Positions 63,009 through 64,000 of a DNA stretch of 64,000 bases are shown piece after piece. Source of the stretch: Luteibacter aegosomatissinici (GTDB lineage Bacteria; Pseudomonadota; Gammaproteobacteria; Xanthomonadales; Rhodanobacteraceae); the NCBI RefSeq assembly GCF_023078495.1, contig NZ_CP095742.1, positions 1,364,001 through 1,428,000 of the forward strand. Reading direction: 5' to 3'. A program made the position numbers and the translations under genes. How positions within the stretch are numbered: position 1 is the first letter of the stretch; each line of letters opens with the position of its first letter. The notes beneath the pieces are model-generated. The model saw only the letters and a program-made list of their open reading frames with translations, was not told where the DNA came from and made no database searches.

Positions 63009-63209
63009 TTGACCCATGAGGTTGGGTGAGTGGAGAGCCACGGCGTTGTCTGCGGGCAGATTGGTGCGTTCGGGCATGCGTGGGCGGACAGCTGCTTCGT
63101 CTGCGGACAGGGGGTAGCTGTGTGGCGTGCATCAGCAAGCGCGGTGTTGTGGCAGCGTTTGCCGATCGTCGCGCGGTGATGCGTTATGGCGTCACCGCTG
63201 CGTCGGCTG

Positions 63210-63232
63210 ATCGCGTGCAAGCACGCTCCTAC
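63210..63232 (-). repeat. Family 2 GTAG repeat arm
   Basis: Minus strand: GTAGGAGCGTGCTTGCACGC then GAT, the same variant as at 62679 in the opposite orientation. Confidence 0.85.
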
Positions 63233-63273
63233 ACGAGCCGTGCGTGTTCATTCATTAATTCGTGGCACATCTT

Positions 63274-63360
63274 GTAGGAGCCCACCCTGTGGGCGACATC
63301 TTTTCGCCGAGCGCACAGGCCCTGCGGCAGTATCGCGAAAGCTGTCGGCCACAGGGTGGC
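63274..63360. repeat. Family 1 GTAG repeat (copy R7), interrupted by the IS110 element
   Basis: The left arm GTAGGAGCCCACCCTGTGGG is intact at 63274, CAGGCCCTG and TCGCGAAA follow, and the right arm begins (GGCCACAGGGTGGC). It is then cut where other copies continue CTCCTAC; instead CTTGTG follows at 63361. The break falls at the CT dinucleotide. Confidence 0.88.
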
Positions 63361-63390
63361 CTTGTGTCTTTGCCGCGGCGTAGGCTGATG

Positions 63391-63540
63391 GGTGAGAGCG
63401 GAGTGCGGCAAGCCGATGATGGCCGGTGCCAGGAGCACGTGTAGGAGCAAGGGCTGCCGCACTCCCTTCACCAAGCCCGAACAGTTGCTCGAGTCCTACC
63501 TCGAATTCACAAGCCGGGGCTGGTGGAGGTGCTCTCACTC
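63391..63540 (+). ncRNA. Predicted IS110 bridge RNA
   Basis: Two stem-loops are visible. The first (stem 63391-63414 with 63451-63472, based on GAGTGCGGC/GCCGCACTC) has an internal loop with GATGGCC on one side, apical GTGC-CAGGA-GCAC, and GTAGGAG (63441-63447) on the other; GTAGGAG is complementary to CTCCTAC, the expected right half of the broken repeat. The second (AGCCC 63474 with GGGCT 63517, apical TCGAG/CTCGA) has CACAAG at 63508-63513, complementary to CTTGTG, the first bases of the element at 63361. These fit target- and donor-binding loops. The exact ends of the RNA are not known. Confidence 0.65.
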
Positions 63541-63564
63541 CCGATCCTACTCCGGAGAGACGCC

Positions 63565-64000
63565 ATGGGCATGCATATCGGTGTTGATGTGGGAAAGGCC
63601 ACACTGGATGTGGTCTGGTTATCGACCAGGCGTCACGAGCGCTTCGCCAATACGCCGGTGGGCCGGGAAAGGCTGCTGAAGGTGTTGTCTCCCAGTGCCG
63701 TTGAGCACATCGTGCTGGAGGCGACAGGAGGCTACGAACGGGCCATCGTGGAAGCCTTGGCGGCAGCCGGCTACCAGGTGACGCGCCTGGCGTCGCACCG
63801 GTCCAGGGCATATGCCGCAGCGCTTGGAAACCTCGCCAAGAACGATAAGATCGATGCCTTAACGTTGGCCCGCATGGCCAAGACCATCGATCCGGAGCCC
63901 TACCAGCCGACACCGCCCGAACGGGCGCAACTGGCCGATCTGGTACGTTGCCGCCAGCAGTTGGTGAGCCAGCGCGATGACAATCGCCGCCGGCTGGCTC
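63565..64000 (+). CDS. IS110-family transposase (bridge-RNA-guided recombinase), partial
   Basis: The first 145 residues are visible; the frame is open to the window end. The RuvC-like DEDD residues are in place: Asp 8 (HIGVDVGK), Glu 52 (IVLEATGGYE), and Asp 94 and Asp 97 (AKNDKIDALTLARMA). The D-x2-D spacing is that of the family. The catalytic Ser of the C-terminal Tnp domain is outside the window. GGAGAGA before the ATG supports the start. The protein acts with the bridge RNA to join element and target at the core dinucleotide. Confidence 0.93.
   Translation, partial: MGMHIGVDVGKATLDVVWLSTRRHERFANTPVGRERLLKVLSPSAVEHIVLEATGGYERAIVEALAAAGYQVTRLASHRSRAYAAALGNLAKNDKIDALTLARMAKTIDPEPYQPTPPERAQLADLVRCRQQLVSQRDDNRRRLA

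What the first reader, a model, noticed from the sequence alone, without database searches (positions are those of the whole stretch)
63391..63472. Target-binding loop of a predicted IS110 bridge RNA spells out the GTAG repeat
The non-coding left end of the IS110 element folds into a long hairpin (63391-63414 with 63451-63472). Its open 3' strand carries GTAGGAG, the complement of CTCCTAC, which ends the right arm of family 1 repeats. Its 5' strand carries GATGGCC, close to the left flank GGTGGCCT seen at the junction. This is the layout of a target guide pair in IS621-type bridge RNAs, so this element appears programmed for the host's own dispersed repeats. The folding and pairing are by eye; the RNA is not demonstrated.
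Basis: partly seen in the sequence, partly recalled or inferred. Interest (0 to 1): 0.88.

Follow-up and report, generated by a model that had tools for sequence, protein, structure and literature searches.

The report
RNA-guided transposon aimed at host repeats
The DNA left of this transposase gene almost certainly encodes a guide RNA that steers the jumping gene into the host's own dispersed repeats; this is a known type of system, but here relatives in different hosts have changed their guides to match each host's repeats.

Summary
The observation largely holds. The IS110 left end (63361-63564) encodes a predicted IS621-type bridge RNA with target and donor loops. All four own-genome copies sit at the same point of a GTAG-tagged REP, GGTGG(C/G)[CT]CCTAC. 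Right target guide, left donor guide and right donor guide match (7-8, 9 and 6 nt); the left target guide matches 6 of 8, alone no better than chance. The fold is conserved (28 sequences; 19 of 33 pairs with changes on both sides). Across 36 distinct right guides, guide matches flank at 4.56 of 6 positions against 1.66 permuted. A same-genus sibling has an 86% identical left end but a changed target loop; its 4 readable right and 3 left ends abut a different repeat (332 copies there, 1 here). Corrections: the lower stem is a closing helix around both loops; the donor loop was missed. Antisense to the bridge RNA lies a match to Rfam sRNA sX15, with a TAnnnT box near its 5' end in 25 of 26 relatives. 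Bridge RNAs aimed at REPs are known, so this is a new member; guide tracking and the antisense partner are the interesting parts. No RNA was demonstrated.

The parts
63274..63294 (+). REP unit GTAGGAGCCCACCCTGTGGGC, partner of the interrupted unit
63347..63361 (+). interrupted REP unit GGCCACAGGGTGGC|C, cut by the insertion; last base is the first of the core
63353..63360 (+). left target AGGGTGGC (last 8 bases of the flank)
63361..63362 (+). core dinucleotide CT at the left end of the element
   Evidence: four-copy comparison
63361..63368 (+). right donor CTTGTGTC (left end of the element)
   Evidence: CTT[AG]T at the corresponding place in many relatives
63381..63386 (+). TAGGCT, possible -10 box of a promoter completed only in the circular form (TTGCTT-17 nt-TAGGCT across the RE-LE junction)
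   Evidence: read by eye; circle-junction promoter described in PMC11208160 section 5
63390..63540 (+). predicted bridge RNA, enclosed by a closing helix (63390-63399 with 63531-63540)
63400..63465 (+). target-binding stem-loop (63400-63414 with 63452-63465)
63416..63424 (+). left target guide ATGATGGC + core C (6 of 8 to AGGGTGGC)
63439..63447 (+). right target guide GTGTAGGAG, complement of CTCCTACAC
63466..63528 (+). donor-binding stem-loop (63466-63478 with 63517-63528)
63481..63489 (+). left donor guide ACAGTTGCT, identical to the right end of the element (GACAGTTG-CT)
63508..63513 (+). right donor guide CACAAG, complement of CTTGTG
63386..63539 (-). match to Rfam RF02234 sX15 (61.6 bits, gathering 55), antisense to the bridge RNA
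63544..63549 (-). TAGGAT on the minus strand, -10-like box 4 nt upstream of the sX15 5' end here; TAnnnT in 25 of 26 distinct sequences of the clade
63565..64000 (+). IS110 transposase start (306 aa; continues past the window; PF01548 and PF02371)

Best explanation
This is an IS110-group insertion sequence whose left end encodes a bridge RNA. After excision as a circle, the RNA is transcribed across the joined ends (inferred from IS621). The transposase holds it: the donor loop pairs with the element's own joined ends (GACAGTTG-CT-TGTG), and the target loop pairs with a host repeat: the right guide reads the constant REP tag (CTCCTAC) and the left guide reads the REP stem next to the core, best at the 3-5 bases nearest it. 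Recombination at CT inserts the element into the repeat. Relatives have changed the target loop, mainly the left guide, to fit the repeats of each host while the donor guides stayed the same. Shown by sequence: element ends, fold, guide-flank matching, host-specific guide changes. Inferred: transcription, RNA-protein binding, circle, recombination.
For: Four own copies, all at the same REP position with CT core. Protein: DEDD_Tnp_IS110 and Transposase_20, similar to IS621 8wt6 at 4.1e-28 and ISCro4 9t56 at 5.8e-30. Fold: 92.4% of cells paired against 79.9% shuffled and 33-47% when slid; 19 of 33 pairs with changes on both sides. Guides: 36 distinct right guides match their flank at 4.56 of 6 against 1.66 +/- 0.19 permuted, best of 20,000 permutations 2.5; 9 further elements, not all with distinct guides, 5.22 of 6 against 2.10, p 5e-5; left guides 6.36 of 9 against 5.36 +/- 0.13 (n=36), and in the own-like subclade 3.93 of the 5 core-proximal bases against 2.78 (14 distinct pairs, p 2e-5; widths 4, 6 and 8 gave p 4e-5 to 6e-5). 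Sibling in G107: 86% identical left end, right guide GTGTGGGAG, 4 of 4 right flanks CTCCCACA, 3 of 3 left flanks GAAGCGG-CT; AGCGGCTCCCACA occurs 332 times in G107 and once here, GGTGNNCTCCTACA 198 times here and 0 in G107. Rare-variant choice: 3 of 4 own insertions are in GGTGGC-type repeats, which make up 10 of 380 unoccupied ones; hypergeometric P 1.2e-4.
Against: No transcript or protein-RNA binding is shown. The own left guide is imperfect (6 of 8; T and A where the target has G; it reads CG rather than CT at the core), and one of the four own copies has G where the guide has C. Ends of single-copy relatives were set by motifs (donor-guide copy plus CT; CTT[AG]T), not by empty sites. 26 of 98 elements had no unique donor-guide motif and were not tested; 7 more were dropped. 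Poor right-guide matches: 1 of 6 in L094; 3 of 6 in L082, L102, L106, L128 and in L139, which the de-duplication had removed; L203. For L192, L194 and L196 the left end was chosen by me between two candidates. Two of the three GGTGGC sites (W, D) lie in related composite repeats (4 differences in 80 nt), so they are not fully independent draws.
Confidence: 0.93

Rival explanations
1. The region acts mainly as a 5' leader of the transposase mRNA controlled by a full-length antisense RNA (sX15/Asr9 type); the folded plus strand matters as a leader, not as a guide.
For: sX15 match on the minus strand; transposase match antisense to sX15 in 33 of 48 fetched loci; TAnnnT box in 25 of 26; [quoted passage not shown]
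Against: A leader has no reason to copy both element ends and the host flank at fixed loop positions across 36 distinct guides, nor to change with the host repeat.
Confidence: 0.05
2. GTAGGAG in the left end is a fragment of a REP that the element picked up, not a guide; the transposase finds REPs by their hairpin.
For: The tag is common here and the target forms hairpins.
Against: The same columns hold other sequences in relatives and match other flanks there.
Confidence: 0.01
3. The match of guide and flank comes from shared ancestry: related elements in related hosts keep the same sites without guiding.
For: Many relatives share similar guides and flanks; no tree-aware test was run.
Against: The main permutation used distinct guides only; right and left guides change in step with flanks between near-identical scaffolds; copies within a genome sit at different loci.
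Confidence: 0.01

Closest known systems
IS621 of E. coli and its bridge RNA (Durrant 2024, PMC11208160; sections 5, 6, 7, 12 and passages read)
   Same: RNA in the left end, target loop before donor loop, left guides read the bottom strand and right guides the top strand, guides run into the core, natural target a REP (ATCAGGCCTAC).
   Different: Here a closing helix encloses both loops instead of a separate 5' stem-loop, and an sX15-type antisense match covers the RNA.
ISPpu9 of Pseudomonas putida with Asr9/Ssr9 (PMC8450116, abstract and passages read)
   Same: An IS in REPs with an antisense RNA over the region just upstream of tnp.
   Different: Sequence relation not tested; in ISPpu9 transcripts were shown, here none; the 9-nt right end here cannot hold an Ssr9-like RNA.
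Rfam RF02234 sX15, Xanthomonadaceae sRNA
   Same: Own region scores 61.6 bits, above gathering, over all 159 positions, on the minus strand.
   Different: Rfam calls it an sRNA; here it is seen as the antisense of an IS110 bridge RNA. The original report (Schmidtke 2012) was not held; I cite it only from a reference list.
IS1111-group elements with seekRNA (PMC11187229, passages read)
   Same: RNA-guided target choice; REP (ISPa11) or attC (ISKpn4) targets.
   Different: IS1111 guide RNAs lie in the right end (PMC11208160 section 12); here the right end after tnp is 9 nt.

Membership tests
IS110 family, IS110 group | DEDD N-terminal domain and C-terminal Transposase_20 domain with conserved serine | tested here: met
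   PF01548 73.6 bits, PF02371 65.8 bits; D8, E52, D94, D97 and S229 invariant in 8 sequences (their catalytic roles are recalled)
IS110 family, IS110 group | structured non-coding RNA in the left end with two loops | tested here: met
   predicted fold and pair counts
IS110 family, IS110 group | donor guides matching the element's own ends | tested here: met
   ACAGTTGCT (9 nt) and CACAAG (6 nt); a copy of the left donor guide plus CT downstream of tnp in 66 of 69 elements, one mismatch allowed (not L123, L137, G050)
IS110 family, IS110 group | target guides matching the insertion site | tested here: met
   right guide strong; left guide significant only across relatives
IS110 family, IS110 group | RNA is transcribed and bound by the transposase; circular intermediate | not testable with these tools
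   no expression data; junction promoter inferred by eye
IS1111 group | guide RNA in the right end | tested here: not met
   9 nt between the tnp stop codon and the core
Rfam sX15 | covariance model score over gathering | tested here: met
   61.6 against 55, minus strand
Rfam sX15 | expressed small RNA | not testable with these tools
   only a conserved TAnnnT box; the sigma-70 consensus scan found no promoter in 63200-63800
Asr9-type regulator | antisense RNA to the tnp 5'-UTR that changes tnp expression | tested here: inconclusive
   position and strand fit; no functional data

The most novel reading that the evidence does not exclude
A REP-hunting IS110 lineage keeps its right guide on the constant REP tag and re-writes its left guide to the REP stem of each new host, while its members also encode, on the opposite strand and from their own promoter, a full-length antisense copy of the bridge RNA (the Rfam 'sX15' RNA) that masks all four guides and so limits or times RNA-guided transposition.
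Probability: 0.35. Interest if true: 0.78.

Novelty: new member of a known kind. Interest (0 to 1): 0.55.

Why it matters
It gives a natural pair of near-identical bridge RNAs whose target loops differ as their hosts' repeats differ, so guide re-programming in nature becomes directly testable by swapping a few bases. It also suggests what the Rfam family sX15 is: the antisense strand of an IS110 bridge RNA, pointing to a possible built-in regulator of RNA-guided recombinases.

Tried and rejected
Rejected: the long hairpin 63391-63472 as one helix (outer bases pair with 63531-63540). Rejected as proof: the own left guide taken alone. Rejected: sX15 as evidence that the plus strand is transcribed (it is the minus strand). 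A sigma-70 consensus scan of 63200-63800 found no promoter on either strand. One search used a wrong search pattern, found nothing and was replaced. The idea that the 7 sX15 loci without a transposase match are small mobile derivatives found no support: none had a downstream CAGTTGCT; by eye L184 and L185 still show the start of a decayed transposase. Not done: structure prediction, covariance-model building, a tree-aware covariation test.

Full report
What is there. The window ends inside an IS110 transposase (start 63565). The whole genome (4.99 Mb, one contig) holds four copies with identical 204-nt left ends. Aligning them fixes the ends: left CTTGTGTC..., right ...GACAGTTG, with core CT. 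Left flanks are GGTGGC (three copies) or GGTGGG (one); right flanks CTCCTAC in 4 of 4, followed by A in three and G in one. All four lie at the same point of a palindromic repeat with the tag GTAGGAGC; GGTGNNCTCCTAC occurs 380 times in the genome (reversed control 4). GTAG-tagged REPs are a known class (PMC3733652, passages).

Fold. The region folds better than all 200 shuffles. In an alignment of 28 sequences (own, 27 others, of which four, L042, L185, L187 and L189, have no transposase match) the consensus has a closing helix, a target stem-loop and a donor stem-loop: 33 pairs, 92.4% of cells paired, 19 pairs with changes on both sides, covariation 0.361 against 0.162 shuffled and at most 0.084 when slid. 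Two limits: most members were found with the sX15 covariance model, and the structure was derived from the same alignment, which favours it against the slid controls.

Guides. Target loop: left guide 63416-63424, right guide 63439-63447. Strand logic is that described for IS621 (PMC11208160 sections 6 and 7). In 20,000 shuffles the right target guide and left donor guide words never occurred together.

Test across relatives. One genome-contig scan gave 80 loci; with 4 own and 14 family loci, 98 elements were examined. 72 had exactly one donor-guide motif; 65 gave a right guide and a right end; 46 had unique target loops, 36 distinct right guides. Right guide against flank, core excluded: 4.56 of 6 for the 36, permuted 1.66 +/- 0.19, best of 20,000 permutations 2.5; all 65 rows 4.65. 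Match by position from the core outward: 0.98, 0.93, 0.91, 0.80, 0.80, 0.22. Left guides: 6.36 of 9 against 5.36 +/- 0.13 (n=36). Nine further elements, found by the sX15 model, gave 5.22 of 6 against 2.10 (17 tried, 2 without a donor motif, 6 without a right end in the locus). Poor matches: L094 1 of 6; L082, L102, L106, L128 and the duplicate L139 3 of 6; L203.

Host-specific guides. In G107, same genus, the left end is 86% identical. Aligned with ours, the donor-guide segment AGCCCGAACAG...CACAAGCCGGGGC differs at one base, and the target loop differs in both guides. Four of four right ends abut CTCCCACA and three of three left ends GAAGCGG. That host carries AGCGGCTCCCACA 332 times (ours 1) and GGTGNNCTCCTACA 0 times (ours 198). 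In a wider own-like set, 16 of 19 loci keep GTAGGAG in the right guide (exceptions L191, L203, L204), while the left guide varies with the flank: 3.93 of 5 core-proximal bases against 2.78 permuted, p 2e-5, 14 distinct pairs. These 8-mers were copied by hand; repeated guide-flank pairs, the own GGTGGG copy, and L214 and L219 (guides cut by contig ends) were left out. In the own genome three of four insertions chose the rare GGTGGC repeat type (10 unoccupied of 380), P 1.2e-4, with the caveat that two of these sites lie in related composite repeats.

Antisense RNA. Rfam sX15 matches 63386-63539 on the minus strand. Of 14 loci scanned, 11 carry it, all antisense to the bridge RNA; L062, L106 and L131 do not. 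In a sample of the order, 44 of 398 genomes have it at E up to 0.001, 35 over the curated cut-off. Of 48 sX15 loci fetched and checked (several are copies within one genome, and one search lists more hits than were fetched), 33 have an IS110 transposase match on the opposite strand, 32 of them beginning 31-43 nt from the sX15 5' end; 8 of the other 15 run off a contig within 108 nt, 7 have no transposase match. Upstream of the sX15 5' end, 25 of 26 distinct sequences have TAnnnT on its strand, in 20 of them ending exactly 6 nt before it (own and G107: 4 nt); shuffled mean 2.0, maximum 8. This box overlaps the transposase leader, so its conservation could have another cause, and the consensus scan of the own region found no promoter. 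ISPpu9 offers a precedent: Asr9 is antisense to the tnp leader and was reported to raise tnp translation (PMC8450116). Searches for sX15 (one paper, passages read), for IS110 with antisense RNA and bridge RNA and for bridge RNA with REP listed no title or abstract that links sX15 to a bridge RNA; the library holds only part of the literature.

Verdict. A bridge RNA programmed for the host's REPs: well supported, and of a known kind, since IS621, ISPpu9 and others already use REPs (PMC11208160; PMC1525189 abstract). What is fresh is the natural guide change between sister elements and the identity of sX15 as the antisense strand of a bridge RNA.

Noticed in passing
L110, L122, L130, L175, L178, L180, L182: Sister elements of the sX15 clade sit in CTAAC(A/G)C-CT-GA(A/G)TTAAG followed by an imperfect palindrome; GTTAGGC follows in 5 of the 9 loci examined (L110, L122, L175, L178, L180). 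This looks like an integron attC site (consensus recalled), i.e. an IS110-group counterpart of the IS1111-attC group. PMC11187229 passages name IS1111 members; the other papers listed were not read.
   Followed up: partly
G110, G114, G120 elements (L013, L016, L015): Other IS110 elements in the same genus sit at sites that read as a GTAG-tagged arm with the core shifted by two bases (GCGCTC[CT]AC); left guide plus core 9 of 9 in G110 and G114, 6 of 9 in G120. Copy number of that repeat in those hosts was not counted.
   Followed up: partly
L187 and L189 (1497-1675): A bridge-RNA/sX15 copy without a transposase match lies between near-identical flanks in two genomes of one genus: a decayed or retained orphan.
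   Followed up: no
window 63347-63361: The repeat variant occupied here (GGCCACAGGGTGGCC) keeps its stem through a paired change relative to the common GCCCAC...GTGGGC type.
   Followed up: no
G107 C14, C20, C1, C13, C5, C6, C19: The sibling element is cut at contig ends in a draft genome; four right ends and three left ends were read, so several copies exist.
   Followed up: yes
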